Positions 16,108-21,341 of a DNA stretch of 37,899 bases are shown here, piece after piece; position 1 is the first letter of the stretch; each line of letters opens with the position of its first letter. This stretch comes from Pseudomonadales bacterium (GTDB lineage Bacteria; Pseudomonadota; Gammaproteobacteria; Pseudomonadales; Azotimanducaceae): the NCBI GenBank assembly GCA_029248675.1, contig JAQWIX010000084.1, positions 1 to 37,899 of the forward strand, read 5' to 3'. The translations under genes and the position numbers were made by a program. The notes under the pieces are model-generated. The model saw only the letters and a list, made by a program, of their open reading frames with translations. It was not told the DNA's origin and did not search any database.

Positions 16108-17499
16108 TTGAGTGGCTCCACAGACAGAGTGCCTTGGTCTACCACCCTGGCCTTCGGTGCTCCGGCCATAGGGGCAGGGTATATGTATTTGATACTCAGC
16201 CTTTATGTGATGAAGTTCTCCACAGATGTGCTGCTCATTGCCCCAGCTGTGATGGGTGCCATATTCAGTTTGTCACGCATCTGGGATGCCATATCGGACC
16301 CCTTGGCGGGCTATCTCAGTGACCGCACGACTTTCCGTTTAGGCCGTCGTCGTACATGGATTTTGGCCAGTTGCCTGCCCATATCCCTTGGTTTTTATGC
16401 GGTATTTGCGCCGCCTTTTTCCATGGAAGGAACCAGCCTGACAATTTGGATGACCATTGCCATTATCGGGTTCTATTCCGCCATGACGCTGTTTTTTGTA
16501 CCCCATATGGCCTTGGGTGCGGAATTGTCTACGGACTACCATGAACGCAGCCGCCTGTTTGGGGTGCGCCACATTTTTTACATTCTTGGCTCAATTTTGT
16601 CTCTGGGCGCCATGTATTTGCTCATCAACGAGGAGTTTTCCCCGGATGGCAATGTGCGACTGCTGGCCCGAGACCTAGCCTTTGTGGCTATCGCCATTAT
16701 GGTGGTGCTAGTGATTTACGCTGTCGTAGTGCTGCGCGAGCGGCCAGAGTTTCAGAACCGCCAGCAGGGTGGACCCTTGCAGGCGTTCCGAGACATTTGG
16801 GGCAACCCTCATGCTCGGCTGCTGATCACCGTGACTTTTATTGAAAACGTCGGCAGCGCCGCCATTGCCGCGCTGACCCTTTACATATCCCAATATGTGG
16901 TCGGTGCTCCAGCCATGGCGCCGCTGATTATTTTGGCCTACATGATCCCATCGTCCCTGTTTGTGCCTATGTGGATTCCACTGTCCAAGCGCTACGGCAA
17001 AATCAAAGTATGGATGGCAGGCATGGTCATGACCGGAGTGTCTTTTGGCGGCATGTTTGTGCTGCCGTTTTTGGATACTCTGGATGAGCGGCTGATGGTA
17101 ATCATCGTGCTCGCGTTTTTTGCCGGCCTAGCTAATGGCTGCGGCGGTACCCTAGGGCCGTCGGTGCAGGGCGATGTGATTGATTTCGATGAGTACCAAA
17201 CCGGTGAGCGCAAAGAAGGCTCCTACTTCGCCGCATGGAACTTTGTGTACAAGAGCGCCCTGGGCGTGATGCTGCTATTAACTGGCTTTGTGCTGGATTT
17301 TGCTGGCTTTGTGCCCAACCAAGAACAAACCATGCAGGTAAAGTTGGCCATGGTCAGCCTGTATGGGCTTTTCCCGCTGGTGTGCTACACCATCGGCGCG
17401 ATTTTATTTAGCCGTTTCAAACTCGATGAAGAGGCTTACGAGGTGATACGCACCGAACTGGATGCCCGGCGCGCCAAAGAGGCGGCTAGCGCCCAGTAA
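16108..17499 (+). CDS. GPH-family (MFS_2) symporter
   Basis: This 463-aa inner-membrane protein has about 12 hydrophobic segments and belongs to the glycoside-pentoside-hexuronide:cation symporter group of the major facilitator superfamily. Supporting motifs are SRIWDAISDPLAGYLSDRT near residue 55, with the conserved DxxxDPxxG-like pattern, FRLGRRRTWI just after it, and GDVIDFDEYQTGERKEGSYFA in the second half. The start is taken as TTG at 16108 because no in-frame ATG precedes the conserved N-terminus. Family members move sugars, but some marine homologues accompany lipid-degradation loci, so the substrate is unknown. Its 3' end overlaps the convergent crotonase gene by 14 bases. Confidence 0.88.
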   Translation: MSGSTDRVPWSTTLAFGAPAIGAGYMYLILSLYVMKFSTDVLLIAPAVMGAIFSLSRIWDAISDPLAGYLSDRTTFRLGRRRTWILASCLPISLGFYAVFAPPFSMEGTSLTIWMTIAIIGFYSAMTLFFVPHMALGAELSTDYHERSRLFGVRHIFYILGSILSLGAMYLLINEEFSPDGNVRLLARDLAFVAIAIMVVLVIYAVVVLRERPEFQNRQQGGPLQAFRDIWGNPHARLLITVTFIENVGSAAIAALTLYISQYVVGAPAMAPLIILAYMIPSSLFVPMWIPLSKRYGKIKVWMAGMVMTGVSFGGMFVLPFLDTLDERLMVIIVLAFFAGLANGCGGTLGPSVQGDVIDFDEYQTGERKEGSYFAAWNFVYKSALGVMLLLTGFVLDFAGFVPNQEQTMQVKLAMVSLYGLFPLVCYTIGAILFSRFKLDEEAYEVIRTELDARRAKEAASAQ

Positions 17500-18277
17500 A
17501 GTTACCCGGGCGTCGCTCGGCCACAGACTTGATGCCTTCCCGAAAGTCGGCGGTTTGCTGCAGCCGATGCTGCTCTAAAAACTCGTGATCTGTTTGGGTC
17601 TTTACCGCCTCGGATAAGCCCGCGCGCATGGTGGCGCGAACCGACGCTACGGCTAGCGGCGCGTTTTCAGCGATTTCTGCCGCCAGTTTAATGGCCTCTG
17701 CTCGCAAATTTTCTTTGTCGGTCAGCACGTCTGCAAGACCCATTTCATAGGCCTCGGTGCCGGTGATACGGCGGCCGGTGAGGAACAGTAGGTGGGCTTT
17801 CTGCTGGCCGATCAGTCGCGCCAATGTGTGAGTCAGACCAAAGCCTGGGTGAAATCCCAGTTTGACGAAATTGGCGGTAAGCCGGGTTTCTGGGCTGACC
17901 ACTCGAAAGTCCGGCATAACAGCCAGACCAAAACCACCACCCACTGCGGCGCCCTGCACTGCAGCGACAACGGGGATGTTGGTATCGAATAGTTTGACCG
18001 CCTCGGCATAAAGCGGGTTGCCGTCACTGGCTTTGCGTTCGGCACGTTCGTCGTTACCGGAAGCGCTGCCGAAGTTATTGCCGGCACAAAAATGCTTGCC
18101 TTCGCTGCACAGCACTACGGCCCGGACCTCATCGCTGGCCTCGAACTTGCCGAAGGCATCGGCTAGGTCGCGAATCATTTGAGTGTCGAAAAAGTTGTTG
18201 GGTCCACGCTGGATTTCCACCACGGCGACGTAGTTCTCAATGGTGATGCCAAGTCCGTCGTAATTCAGATCCTGCAT
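17486..18277 (-). CDS. enoyl-CoA hydratase/isomerase (crotonase) family protein, atypical
   Basis: This 263-aa protein has the crotonase fold used on acyl-CoA thioesters. Oxyanion-hole segments are visible at HFCAGNNF and AAVGGGFGLA. In ordinary enoyl-CoA hydratases two glutamates (144 and 164, rat numbering) do the chemistry. By eye, Gly (in GGGFGLA) and Phe (in ANFVKLG) stand at those places here, so simple hydratase activity is doubtful; isomerase, hydrolase or ring-opening roles are possible. The start ATG at 18277 is preceded by GGAGAG. It is convergent with the MFS_2 gene and overlaps it by 14 bases. Confidence 0.9.
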   Translation of the reverse strand: MQDLNYDGLGITIENYVAVVEIQRGPNNFFDTQMIRDLADAFGKFEASDEVRAVVLCSEGKHFCAGNNFGSASGNDERAERKASDGNPLYAEAVKLFDTNIPVVAAVQGAAVGGGFGLAVMPDFRVVSPETRLTANFVKLGFHPGFGLTHTLARLIGQQKAHLLFLTGRRITGTEAYEMGLADVLTDKENLRAEAIKLAAEIAENAPLAVASVRATMRAGLSEAVKTQTDHEFLEQHRLQQTADFREGIKSVAERRPGNFTGR

Positions 18278-18304
18278 GTGTCTCTCCTGTCACACGGTTG
18301 TTAA

Positions 18305-18372
18305 TCAGTTAGGCACAGGTGCCCAACGCCGAAGCATCAACCATAAGCCGCGGATGCTGCTGAAGGCAACGG
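18305..18372 (-). pseudogene. displaced 3' end of a DUF6580-like gene (direct repeat copy 1)
   Basis: These 68 bases match 19359-19426 at 66 positions. They encode the last 22 residues and stop codon of the DUF6580-like protein. The two differences (18308 and in the Arg codon near 18328) are both synonymous. Beyond 18372 the nucleotide match drops, although the next codons still resemble the intact gene weakly (N-L and V at matching places). No longer gene body is attached, so this is a remnant. It lies 28 bases upstream of the crotonase start. Confidence 0.9.
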
Positions 18373-18414
18373 TCCGGAGCGACAGGTTGGTCTTGCTATT
18401 ACAAGCTTTGTTTA

Positions 18415-18460
18415 ACCTAACGCAAAAGCCCAACTCAAAGATTGAGCGCAAGGGCTAGGC
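18415..18460 (-). terminator. hairpin at the hicB stop: terminator or attC-like structure
   Basis: On the minus strand the end of hicB reads AGCCC (18456-18452), a second stem CTCAA/TTGAG (18446-18442 and 18438-18434) with loop TCT, then GGGCT (18431-18427) followed by T's. This nested stem could be an intrinsic terminator. The outermost bases, GCCTAGC and GTTAGGT, also pair if G-T pairs are allowed. GTTAGGT fits the integron R' consensus GTTRRRY, while GCCTAGC misses RYYYAAC by one base. At 46 bases it is shorter than usual attC sites. Confidence 0.45.
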
Positions 18461-18883
18461 AACCTTAGATACGTGCATAATTAGTTCGTAACCAAGCAAC
18501 CGCAAGCCGTGCTCAATTGGGCGAATGTGCGATTGGTGATCAAGATCCAGCATCCGTCTTATTTGGTTTTCGCGTAGGCCCATCATAGATGCCAACCTAA
18601 CATTGCTGATTTTTGATTCGATCAATGCGTTATGCAGTGCGACCTTTGCCGCGACAAGAGGGCTTAAACAGACCAAAGGCTGGCCACGTCTTGGTTTTGA
18701 TCCACTGGGAATTACCTGACGGTCATCAATATACATCGCCAGAGCGACGACCAGTGCATCCTGCGCTTCATGCAGAGCATGTTCTTCGTCGTCACCGAAA
18801 GTGATGGCCTCAGGGACATCAACAAAGCGAGCAATTACACCGTCTTCATTTTGTTCAAGTGCTACCGGGTATTGAAATAGCAT
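18455..18883 (-). CDS. hicB: HicB-family antitoxin
   Basis: HicB (142 aa) is the antitoxin of a type II HicAB pair; it neutralises HicA and represses its own operon. The N-terminal partially degraded RNase H-like domain starts with FQYPVALEQNEDGVIARFVDVPEAITFGDDEEHA, the family's typical pattern. The C-terminal part (about 85-135, NVRLASMMGLRENQIRRMLD) is a helix-turn-helix DNA-binding domain. Its ATG overlaps the hicA stop as TAATG on the minus strand, so the two are coupled. It lies inside the unit bounded by the 68-bp direct repeats. Confidence 0.92.
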   Translation of the reverse strand: MLFQYPVALEQNEDGVIARFVDVPEAITFGDDEEHALHEAQDALVVALAMYIDDRQVIPSGSKPRRGQPLVCLSPLVAAKVALHNALIESKISNVRLASMMGLRENQIRRMLDLDHQSHIRPIEHGLRLLGYELIMHVSKVA

Positions 18884-19080
18884 TACAAGTCCTCTTGGTT
18901 AATGCCCAATTGTTTACAAACAAGGTTTACGTAGTTTTTGCTCAAGTCTTTCCCGCCGTGGGTCTTGATCACGGTTTTTCTGCCGTTGAATCGCGCTTGC
19001 ACGTGCCCACCTTTGCCTCGCCCTGTTTCGATTTCGACACCTAGCGCTTGAAGTTTCTTGATTAGCTGTCTGCCTTTCAT
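18883..19080 (-). CDS. hicA: HicA-family mRNA interferase toxin
   Basis: HicA (65 aa) is a small double-stranded-RNA-binding-fold ribonuclease that cuts mRNA when HicB is lost. It starts MKGRQLIKKLQALGVE, and the conserved catalytic His26 is in the GGHVQARF motif. The following RKTVIKTHGGKDLSKNYV strand-helix is standard. I use the ATG at 19080. An in-frame upstream ATG at 19113 would place the operator inside the coding region and adds residues foreign to the family. The predicted -10 box ends only four bases before the ATG, so the message may be leaderless. Confidence 0.92.
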   Translation of the reverse strand: MKGRQLIKKLQALGVEIETGRGKGGHVQARFNGRKTVIKTHGGKDLSKNYVNLVCKQLGINQEDL

Positions 19081-19084
19081 GGCT

Positions 19085-19113
19085 ATAATATTCGCACATA
19101 TTTGTGCGATCAA
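19085..19113 (-). promoter_or_regulatory. hicAB promoter with operator palindrome
   Basis: On the minus strand TTGATC (19113-19108), 17 bases, TATTAT (19090-19085) make a good sigma70 promoter. The spacer holds most of a perfect inverted repeat, TCGCACA (19092-19098), TATT, TGTGCGA (19103-19109). This is the expected place for HicB autorepression. The start of transcription would fall at or next to the hicA ATG at 19080. Confidence 0.68.
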
Positions 19114-19358
19114 GAGGGCAAAAGGCTACCGGTCGTCTCTAAAAACAACCGGTTATCGGAGAAAACCGCATCCAAAGAGGTGGCCCATGACTGTGGTCGC
19201 TCCGCAGCGGCTAGAGCAGACCTGTCGGCGCTTTAGTGAAGGGCATTGATTATCGGGTCAACGGCGGTAGGGCGTCTCTTAGCCTCCATTTTCTTAAAAT
19301 GGATCCCATGTAGCCGTACTTTCTAGGAAGGTGGAGTAGGTTTTTTCTTAGCAACCTC
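19114..19358. other. non-coding part of the hicAB unit
   Basis: No convincing gene is seen here. It holds a short AT-rich perfect inverted repeat (TCCATTTT 19285-19292, AAAATGGA 19296-19303, three-base loop), possibly a weak terminator for the DUF6580-like gene, and a repeat of ACCGGT separated by 14 bases near 19127-19152. It joins the hicAB promoter to the second copy of the 68-bp repeat. Confidence 0.5.
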
Positions 19359-19426
19359 TCAATTAGGCACAGGTGCCCAACGTCGAAGCATCAACCATAA
19401 GCCGCGGATGCTGCTGAAGGCAACGG
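19359..19426. repeat. 68-bp direct repeat copy 2, within the DUF6580-like gene
   Basis: This copy forms the functional 3' end and TGA stop of the DUF6580-like gene. It matches 18305-18372 at 66 of 68 positions at a fixed offset of 1054 bases with no gap. The repeats bracket hicAB and its flanking non-coding DNA. Confidence 0.93.
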
Positions 19427-19898
19427 CCCCAAAGATCAGATTGGCGGCAATGCTTCGCAGCAAAAAGGGGATCCCTGCCGCATAGCAGCTGAGCCAGCCT
19501 GCCAAGGTGTTCGGGTAAAACCCCGTCGCCATGGGGGCAGCGTTGCTGATTAAGTAAAAAATAACGGCGCTGACAACGGCGGCACCGCCAACCTGCAGCG
19601 GGCCAATCTTTCGCAGCAACGGCGTAACCCCAGCGGCACAGGCAATGTGTGCGATATAAACCAGCGCCATGGCCGCAGTGCTGTAGGCGCCGATCACCGC
19701 ATCGGCTGCGGCAACGCTGACAATAACCGGCAGGGGTAACAGGTGCCGAGGCAGGTAGGCAGCGGCCAGTAAACCAACAGCGCCGATGGTGGACATGCCC
19801 GCTGGGTGAGGCATCAGGTGTGATGCGGCGCCAACGACGCAGAGTGTCAGGGCGATGAACCAAGGCTTTAGCCCTTGGGAAGGTGCGTTAAACAGCAT
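19359..19898 (-). CDS. DUF6580-like integral membrane protein
   Basis: This 179-aa hydrophobic protein has about five membrane segments. The pattern HLMPHPAGMSTIGAVGLLAAAY near the N-terminus and FYPNTLAGWLSCYAAGIPFLLRS near residue 135 fit the DUF6580 family, small membrane proteins of unknown function that resemble ECF-type vitamin transporters. Its last 22 codons are the 68-bp direct repeat, copied again beyond hicAB. The ATG at 19898 has a weak AGGTC-like sequence upstream, and a 14-bp perfect palindrome lies 27 bases further up. The gene appears intact. Confidence 0.78.
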   Translation of the reverse strand: MLFNAPSQGLKPWFIALTLCVVGAASHLMPHPAGMSTIGAVGLLAAAYLPRHLLPLPVIVSVAAADAVIGAYSTAAMALVYIAHIACAAGVTPLLRKIGPLQVGGAAVVSAVIFYLISNAAPMATGFYPNTLAGWLSCYAAGIPFLLRSIAANLIFGAVAFSSIRGLWLMLRRWAPVPN

Positions 19899-19924
19899 GT
19901 CGGCAGGTCTTTTAATTGAGATGA

Positions 19925-19938
19925 CCCACTATAGTGGG
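19925..19938. promoter_or_regulatory. 14-bp palindrome upstream of the DUF6580-like gene
   Basis: CCCACTATAGTGGG is a perfect palindrome whose centre TATAGT could be the -10 box of the minus-strand gene starting at 19898. With a 17-base spacer the -35 would be a poor ACGACA. An operator covering the -10 is one reading. On the plus strand, TATAGT near 20033 may serve the MFS gene, but its nearest TTGACC is 21 bases away. Confidence 0.35.
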
Positions 19939-20066
19939 CCGCAGCTAAATTGTCGTTGCATCTTCGGCAGCGCGGCATGAGCGAAATTAATACGACCTAT
20001 CACCTTGACCGGTTCGCGACATGGCATGGGGTATAGTCAGGTCTTTACCCAAGGAAGTTGGCGAAG

Positions 20067-21341
20067 ATGGCAAGTCGAGACATCTACTCCGTGTTGGCGG
20101 TGCCAAACTTCCGTTGGTTGTGGATCGGCAGTCTTGGGTCGTCCTTCGCCATGAACATGCAGATCATCGCCCGCGGCTGGTTTGTTTATGACCTCACCTC
20201 GTCGGCCATGGATCTAGCATGGGTGACCCTGTCCTTTATGCTGCCATCGGTATTGTTCTCTCTGTACGGTGGGGTGTTGGCTGACCGGCTACCCAAGCGC
20301 AGCCTCATTGTGTTCGCTCAAACCCTAAACGCCGCTGCAACTTTAGTCATGGCTTGGATCATTTTTTCTGGCAACGTGGTCTTTTGGGACTTTATCTGGT
20401 TCGGTTTTTTTAACGGCACAGTGCTAGCTCTGTCCATGCCGGCGCGGCAGGCTTTCGTACCTGAACTAATCCCCCAGCCCCTTATCTTTACTGCCATGGC
20501 ATTGAACACCACGGGCTGGAATCTCTCTCGAATTGTCGGGCCGGCGTTGGCTGGACTGCTGATCGCTTGGTTAGCCGGTGGTGATAAGCAGTCGGCTTTT
20601 GGTGTGGGCATCGTCTATACCGTAATCGCTAGCTTGTATCTGGCATCGGCTCTAACCACCTTGTTTGTGGATCGTCCTGGCATCTCAACTCAAGAACAGC
20701 GCAATGGCACCTATCAAGAAATGCGCGAGGGACTTGCCTACGTATTTGCCCACCCGCGTATTTTCGCCCTGTTGCTGCTATCGATTATTCCGTTTTTATT
20801 CGGAATGCCGCTGAACACCTTGCTACCGGCTTTCAATCAGGATGTGTTGGGCGGACATGCGGACAGTTTGGGTATTTTGGTATCCGCCATGGGGGGCGGG
20901 GCCATTATTGGCTCCATGACCATGGCCGCCATGGGCGATATGCAGCGCAAAGGGTTTTGGCTGCTTATCAGCAGTTTAGGTTGGGCTCTCGCTACTGCCT
21001 TTTTCGGTTTCAGTGTGAACCTCACGGCGGCGCTGGTGGCGATAGCACTAATTGGCCTGATAAGCGCGTGGAATATGTCGCTTAATCGTGGACTCATTCA
21101 ACACGCGGTGGACTCACATATGCGGGGGCGTATTATGAGTATCGACATGATGTTTCATGGGCTTATGCCCCTCGGCGTGTTCCCCATCAGTTGGATTGCT
21201 GAAGGTTACGGTGTTGGTACGGCCCTTGTGGTGAGCGGCAGCGCCTTCGCTGCGTTAATTGGACTGAGCATGATGTGGTCGCCAGCGGTAAGAGATATGG
21301 CGCAGGATAAAGCAGCAAAGCCAGAAGCCTCAGCAAACTAG
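20067..21341 (+). CDS. major facilitator superfamily transporter (DHA3-like)
   Basis: This 424-aa inner-membrane protein has about 12 hydrophobic segments. NFRWLWIGSLGSSFA near the N-terminus, the ARGWFVYDLTSSAMDLAWV segment, and GGVLADRLPKRSL (motif A) are typical of the DHA3/EntS-like branch, which exports small molecules such as siderophores or drugs. I prefer the ATG at 20067, about 11 bases after AAGGA, over a TTG at 20058 directly touching that site. It is followed 30 bases later by the amidohydrolase in the same direction, so the two are probably co-transcribed. The substrate is unknown. Confidence 0.88.
   Translation: MASRDIYSVLAVPNFRWLWIGSLGSSFAMNMQIIARGWFVYDLTSSAMDLAWVTLSFMLPSVLFSLYGGVLADRLPKRSLIVFAQTLNAAATLVMAWIIFSGNVVFWDFIWFGFFNGTVLALSMPARQAFVPELIPQPLIFTAMALNTTGWNLSRIVGPALAGLLIAWLAGGDKQSAFGVGIVYTVIASLYLASALTTLFVDRPGISTQEQRNGTYQEMREGLAYVFAHPRIFALLLLSIIPFLFGMPLNTLLPAFNQDVLGGHADSLGILVSAMGGGAIIGSMTMAAMGDMQRKGFWLLISSLGWALATAFFGFSVNLTAALVAIALIGLISAWNMSLNRGLIQHAVDSHMRGRIMSIDMMFHGLMPLGVFPISWIAEGYGVGTALVVSGSAFAALIGLSMMWSPAVRDMAQDKAAKPEASAN

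What the first reader, a model, noticed from the sequence alone, without database searches (positions are those of the whole stretch)
18305..19426. hicAB on a 1,054-bp unit bounded by 68-bp repeats of a neighbouring gene's 3' end
The sequence shows two 68-bp direct repeats, 66/68 identical and exactly 1,054 bases apart. Each ends precisely at the stop codon of the DUF6580-like gene, and both mismatches are synonymous. The unit carries only hicA, hicB, a promoter and non-coding DNA. This resembles integration at a gene 3' end, in which the incoming element supplies a replacement end and displaces the original. No recombinase is present, so the unit may be a non-autonomous integrating element carrying a toxin-antitoxin pair. 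A simple partial duplication is the alternative. Synonymous-only change implies that both ends once encoded protein.
Basis: partly seen in the sequence, partly recalled or inferred. Interest (0 to 1): 0.78.

Follow-up and report, generated by a model that had tools for sequence, protein, structure and literature searches.

The report
Toxin-antitoxin pair inserted, target duplicated
A two-gene toxin-antitoxin module has landed between two ordinary bacterial genes and left a 68-base copy of its landing site on either side; a distantly related module elsewhere did much the same with a 48-base copy, which gives a trace of how such selfish gene pairs may enter chromosomes.

Summary
Copies at 18305-18372 and 19359-19426 match at 66 of 68 bases, lie 1,054 bases apart, and both end at the DUF6580 stop codon with two synonymous differences. 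They flank hicA-hicB. In 7 of 7 genus mates with the crotonase/DUF6580 adjacency the site is empty, with one gene end. The only close hicAB relative in 40 genus genomes (81% HicB) sits at another locus in one of those 7, G029. So hicAB is an insertion.

[quoted passage not shown] In G099 a hicAB is flanked by 47/48-bp copies of a GST/phosphoesterase junction; G097 has that junction empty, and G102 keeps a decayed copy.

Against generality: flanking repeats are not enriched at hicB loci (3 of 67 versus 16 of 560 control positions, p = 0.33), and K-12 hicAB has none. The insertion step itself is inferred.

The parts
18305..18372 (-). Repeat copy 1: detached copy of the last 21 codons and stop of the DUF6580 gene, next to the crotonase start; its outer flank shows a short resemblance, judged by eye, to the native junction of two relatives
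18373..18454 (-). Interior non-coding DNA after hicB, with a terminator-like hairpin at 18428-18447
   Evidence: folding of the stretch is no better than shuffles (z -0.04)
18455..18883 (-). hicB antitoxin gene (HicB-like, 142 aa)
   Evidence: PF15919 E 2.9e-4, below the Pfam cutoff
18883..19080 (-). hicA toxin gene (HicA, 65 aa from the ATG)
   Evidence: PF07927 39.1 bits, cutoff 27
19092..19109 (.). Palindromic operator-like sequence (CGCACA-4-TGTGCG) upstream of hicA, kept in the G029 relative and, changed, in G147
   Evidence: sequence, alignments; role as HicB operator inferred
19114..19358 (-). Interior non-coding DNA upstream of hicA; no relative reported in 206 family genomes (two best candidates per genome scored)
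19359..19426 (-). Repeat copy 2: working 3' end of the DUF6580 gene
19359..19898 (-). DUF6580 gene, intact, host gene of the insertion site
17486..18277 (-). Crotonase (enoyl-CoA hydratase family) gene, other neighbour of the insertion site

Best explanation
A bare hicAB module, travelling with its own operator but no recombinase, inserted into a tight junction between two co-directional chromosomal genes, and the insertion duplicated 68 bp of the target. Shown: the site is empty in relatives, the insert is confined to hicAB and about 360 bp of flanking DNA, both neighbours are intact, and a copy of the gene end lies on either side. Inferred: the duplication arose with the insertion, through a break-repair or template-switch step (copying runs to one point, jumps onto hicAB DNA, and returns to a point 68 bp back), and duplication is what lets both neighbours survive an insertion into a junction whose gap is only 12-15 bp in relatives. 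The addictive toxin-antitoxin pair may then keep the insert from being lost by recombination between the repeats.
For: Empty junction with one gene end in 7 of 7 genus mates with the crotonase/DUF6580 adjacency, out of 17 relatives with DUF6580. Close hicB in 2 of 40 genus genomes, at different loci. Copy 1 runs on into DNA with a short resemblance to the native junction of L004/L005, while copy 2 runs into DNA without it. Separate case, with a HicB only about 42% identical: G099 hicAB flanked by 47/48-bp copies of a GST stop/phosphoesterase start junction; G097 has the junction once and empty; G102 shares the insertion and keeps a decayed copy 1 that ends at what looks like the same inner border. 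In both cases both neighbours stay intact. Insert GC 48.4% versus 55.3%. R-M systems are described as inserting with long, variable target duplications (passages of PMC3874152; of PMC1643837).
Against: Flanking repeats are not enriched at hicB loci (3 of 67 versus 16 of 560 control positions at score 40, p 0.33; 4 or 5 of 67 if borderline L034 and L098 are added, p 0.16 or 0.06); the 16 control positions are overlapping windows from 5 of 20 stretches. Excluding the index case, short near-identical repeats are 1 of 66 versus 0 of 560, p 0.11, a class defined after seeing the data. K-12 hicAB has no such repeats. No same-species empty site was available, and the window's assembly is in 192 contigs. 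The repeat ending exactly at the stop codon is not predicted by random breakpoints, only made plausible by survival of the gene.
Confidence: 0.6

Rival explanations
1. One-sided homologous transfer: a donor strain already had hicAB behind DUF6580. Its hicAB plus gene end recombined into the gene by homology on one side and joined illegitimately on the other, so the old gene end was displaced rather than duplicated.
For: The two copies differ at 2 bases and copy 2 carries at least one derived change. The weak similarity continuing past copy 1 (10 of 18) could be a diverged donor edge (p 0.02-0.12). L122 shows a hicAB with a 188-bp, 79% identical fragment of the neighbouring HAD gene on its far side, next to threonine synthase.
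Against: None of the 17 relatives with DUF6580 (97 genomes searched) shows a hicAB hit in the fetched stretch. Both copies share a C-terminus one residue shorter than in the 7 relatives read, so both are close to this species. It pushes the original insertion one step back.
Confidence: 0.2
2. Site-specific non-autonomous element: an integrase in trans recognises a gene 3' end; the element carries an identical end, restoring the gene and displacing the old end.
For: Repeat ends exactly at the stop codon. In G147 (L029) an 18/19-bp repeat on both sides of hicAB includes the last codons and stop of a DUF7694 gene; 1 of 560 control positions had an equally strong repeat within 100 bp of both ends.
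Against: No integrase or transposase family above cutoff in 34 window proteins, no other copy of repeat or interior in the 92% complete assembly, no attC or XerD-like signal; the G099 case duplicates a junction extending 27 bp into the next gene. The rest of the genome was not searched for integrases.
Confidence: 0.12
3. Simple tandem duplication or a metagenome assembly artefact.
For: The assembly has 192 contigs; tandem duplications occur in control stretches.
Against: The interior is absent at the site in 7 relatives. The copies differ at two bases, so they are not one sequence assembled twice. The flanking genes are in the order seen in those relatives.
Confidence: 0.06

Closest known systems
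Insertion with long target duplication of restriction-modification systems (Nobusato et al. 2000 and Furuta et al. 2010, seen only as citations; reviewed in PMC3874152)
   Same: A small addictive gene system inserted without a linked mobile element and flanked by a duplication of target DNA; the review gives long and variable, of the order of 100 bp (passage). Found by comparing two genomes (passage of PMC1643837).
   Different: Here the cargo is a toxin-antitoxin pair, not R-M; the duplications are 68 and 48 bp and lie at gene junctions. I did not read the two primary papers (Furuta 2010 not held; Nobusato 2000 not looked up).
Chromosomal toxin-antitoxin islets such as ccd between folA and apaH in E. 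coli (passages of PMC2654758, and PMC7167474)
   Same: TA modules sitting between genes that are adjacent in other strains.
   Different: In the passages seen no target duplication is described for TA modules; PMC7167474 states that the mechanisms of integration remain unelucidated.
Integron gene cassettes with TA modules
   Same: Small TA units with their own promoter (passage of PMC2654758).
   Different: No attC-like pair in 18201-19600 on either strand and no integrase among the proteins scanned.
pdif (Xer) modules carrying TA genes (recalled)
   Same: TA modules bounded by short recombination sites and moved without an own recombinase (recalled).
   Different: The XerD half-site (recalled letters) is not above chance in the locus, 8 matches with up to 3 mismatches against 7.1 expected; the repeat is 68 bp of coding sequence.

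Membership tests
HicAB type II toxin-antitoxin module | HicA-family toxin gene | tested here: met
   PF07927 E 8.2e-10, 39.1 bits over cutoff 27; no NCBIfam hit
HicAB type II toxin-antitoxin module | HicB-type antitoxin gene directly after it | tested here: inconclusive
   PF15919 E 2.9e-4 but 21.4 bits, below cutoff 27; no NCBIfam hit; tblastn relatives in 69 plasmid records, all under 60% identity, several annotated HicB
HicAB type II toxin-antitoxin module | Toxin activity neutralised by antitoxin | not testable with these tools
   needs an expression assay
Insertion with long target duplication | Direct repeat of target DNA on both sides of the insert | tested here: met
   66/68; second case 47/48
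Insertion with long target duplication | Empty site with one copy in a close relative | tested here: met
   7 of 7 genus mates with the adjacency; G097 for the second case. All are other species, not strains of the same one
Insertion with long target duplication | No linked mobile-element recombinase and no terminal inverted repeats | tested here: met
   Pfam scan of 34 window proteins, which are 33 of the 42 ORFs of at least 130 aa plus hicA; the 9 left out are overlapping-frame ORFs and one cut by the window end. The only transposase match is a below-cutoff helix-hairpin-helix hit in RuvA. Inverted repeats in 17000-20500 are 12-16 nt and none joins the two ends of the unit
Gene 3'-end site-specific integrative element | Recombinase in cis or a detectable family of elements with the same ends | tested here: not met
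   an integrase elsewhere in the genome was not searched for
Integron cassette | attC site | tested here: not met
   simple consensus test on 18201-19600

The most novel reading that the evidence does not exclude
Toxin-antitoxin modules have a recombinase-free route into chromosomes: they insert at tight gene junctions by a copying reaction that duplicates tens of bases of the target, which keeps both neighbours working and leaves a reversible, addiction-protected insertion; the same route serves R-M systems, so it may be a general entry path for addictive gene pairs.
Probability: 0.25. Interest if true: 0.75.

Novelty: new variant of a known kind. Interest (0 to 1): 0.5.

Why it matters
[quoted passage not shown] Two hicAB insertions with empty sites in relatives and target duplications of 68 and 48 bp give defined junctions that can be tested, and link TA modules to the insertion pattern known for R-M systems. 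I saw no paper reporting this for TA modules in the listings of searches of the held library and in passages of five papers; most listed papers were not opened, and subscription journals are mostly missing.

Tried and rejected
Integron cassette: no attC-like pair. Xer/pdif module: XerD-like half sites at chance level. Multi-copy element in the same genome: none found. Phage origin: no match of the unit in 50,697 phage records at distant blastn; a viral-contig scan gave 3 loci with 35-45% HicB relatives. Plasmid origin: 69 plasmid records carry HicB relatives, all below 60% identity. A genome-contig scan with a two-sequence profile returned one locus, 81% identical, with the same coordinates as the G029 copy. 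An order-level search of 390 genomes added HicB relatives of 27-46%. A search for the G147 case's empty site found the DUF7694 gene in no other of 3 genus genomes.

General enrichment of flanking repeats at hicB loci: tested and not found. In one search, 77 loci were put in, 10 were dropped (a flank under 300 bp, or no hit) and 67 tested; L029, which has the 19-bp repeat, is among the dropped. L034 scored 39 there because the hicB match swallowed part of its repeat. L105 (about 290 bp, 83%, includes a hicB 3' fragment) and L122 are older or different structures and not counted as clean cases. L086 and L094 (33 and 26 bp) were not followed. The 20 control stretches (400 kb) come from genomes that only partly overlap those of the hicB loci; their 16 positive positions are overlapping windows from 5 stretches with tandem duplications or repeat-rich genes.

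The idea that similarity continues past copy 1 as a decayed gene remnant: p 0.02-0.12, not accepted. The E. coli K-12 locus showed only a 12-nt chance-like repeat; the locus matched in 5367 of 5426 E. coli genomes, and those with partial cover were not examined.

Full report
What is there. Two 68-bp direct repeats, 18305-18372 and 19359-19426, match at 66 of 68 bases and lie 1,054 bp apart. Both encode the last 21 residues and stop codon of the DUF6580 protein on the minus strand; the two differences are synonymous. Copy 2 is the working end of the gene (19359-19898); copy 1 stands alone, 27 bp from the start of the crotonase gene. Between them lie hicA, hicB and non-coding DNA. Nothing else in the 2.55-Mb assembly matches the repeat or the interior beyond chance-level hits. 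The rest of the window looks like ordinary chromosome (a class II tRNA synthetase, YebC, RuvCAB, Tol-Pal-type proteins, QueC, a tRNA, SelO, P450, dehydrogenases and others); none of the 34 proteins scanned is an integrase, transposase or phage protein above cutoff.

It is an insertion. DUF6580 was found in 18 of 97 genomes, the own one included. Of the 17 others, 7 have crotonase and DUF6580 directly adjacent with no hicAB and a single gene end; 4 have a metallo-beta-lactamase-fold gene in between (family shown for one of them; the others by eye); 1 has a run of N there; 5 show no crotonase in the fetched stretch. Among 40 genus genomes only the window's own and G029 have a HicB match (81% identity), and in G029 it lies beside an M19 dipeptidase gene while its crotonase/DUF6580 site is empty. 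In G000, G001 and G038 the sequence upstream of the related dipeptidase gene gives no match to the hicAB side of G029. The G029 contig begins at the hicA operator, so its left border cannot be read. The DNA shared between the window unit and G029 runs from the operator-like palindrome to just after the hicB stop (77%), so operator, hicA and hicB form the conserved core.

How it probably entered. Read along the minus strand, copy 1 runs on into sequence with a short resemblance, judged by eye, to the native junction of relatives L004 and L005, while copy 2 runs into unrelated DNA right after the stop codon. This is what a target duplication gives. At one mismatch all 7 relatives carry copy 1's base; at the other they split 4 to 3. 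The changes therefore do not show that copy 1 was under protein-level selection after the event.

A second case. A survey of hicB loci turned up G099 (L034), where a hicAB with HicB about 42% identical to the window's lies between a GST gene and a calcineurin-like phosphoesterase gene, flanked by 47/48-bp repeats that span the GST stop codon and the first 27 bases of the phosphoesterase. Of 9 genomes of that genus searched with the phosphoesterase, G097 has the same two genes directly adjacent with one copy of this junction. G102 carries a hicB at the same place, gives no hit for hicA, and keeps a decayed first copy that ends at what looks like the same inner border. The simplest reading is one ancestral insertion with a 48-bp target duplication, after which the unneeded copy decayed in G102. 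That G099's own copies remain 47/48 identical in spite of this age suggests gene conversion or constraint, or a second event at the same place, and means that repeat identity does not date such events.

Weaker cases. In G147 (L029) an 18/19-bp repeat, which in one copy is the end and stop codon of a DUF7694 gene, lies within 100 bp of both ends of the assumed hicAB span; 1 of 560 control positions did as well; no empty site could be found. Its hicA has an in-frame stop (my reading of the sequence). L105 and L122 have longer, more diverged repeats.

Limits. The general survey is negative: 3 of 67 hicB loci versus 16 of 560 control positions carry a flanking repeat of score 40 or more (p 0.33; with one or two borderline loci added p 0.16 or 0.06). 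The control positions are overlapping windows and cluster in 5 of 20 stretches, so this is a rough comparison. Many hicB loci, K-12's among them, have no repeats, so target duplication is either occasional or soon erased. The mechanism (template switching or other repair with short homologies) is inferred.

Relation to known systems. R-M systems are described as inserting with long, variable target duplications of the order of 100 bp and without a linked mobile element (PMC3874152, passages). The present case works like that with a TA module as cargo. It meets the repeat, empty-site and no-recombinase criteria as far as tested, but the empty sites are from other species. It does not meet the tested criteria for an integron cassette or for a gene-end integrative element family. 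A 2020 review calls the integration mechanism of TA systems unelucidated (PMC7167474, passage). I therefore rate this a new variant of a known kind.

Noticed in passing
L009, L011, L012, L014 (between crotonase and DUF6580): In four genus mates a metallo-beta-lactamase-fold gene sits in the same junction, so this site differs in content between relatives; no flanking repeat of score 30 or more was found in these loci.
   Followed up: partly
L030/L077 (G102): hicB persists while hicA gives no hit, and the GST reading frame now appears to end in a stop formed by the duplicated start of the next gene after a small deletion.
   Followed up: partly
L105:1043-2636 (G219): A unit made of a hicB 3' fragment and a gene end on the other strand (DUF1501-like by recall; no Pfam hit for the piece scanned) is repeated at about 83% identity around hicAB, period 1306.
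   Followed up: partly
L098:1401-2148 (G241): A hicB without a clear hicA, next to a CoA-transferase family III gene, is flanked by a 59-bp, 86% repeat that contains a palindrome.
   Followed up: no
window 18308-18327 and 19362-19381: The stop-codon end of the repeat is a near-perfect hairpin (GTTAGGC...GCCCAAC in copy 1), probably forced by the conserved coding sequence around it.
   Followed up: partly
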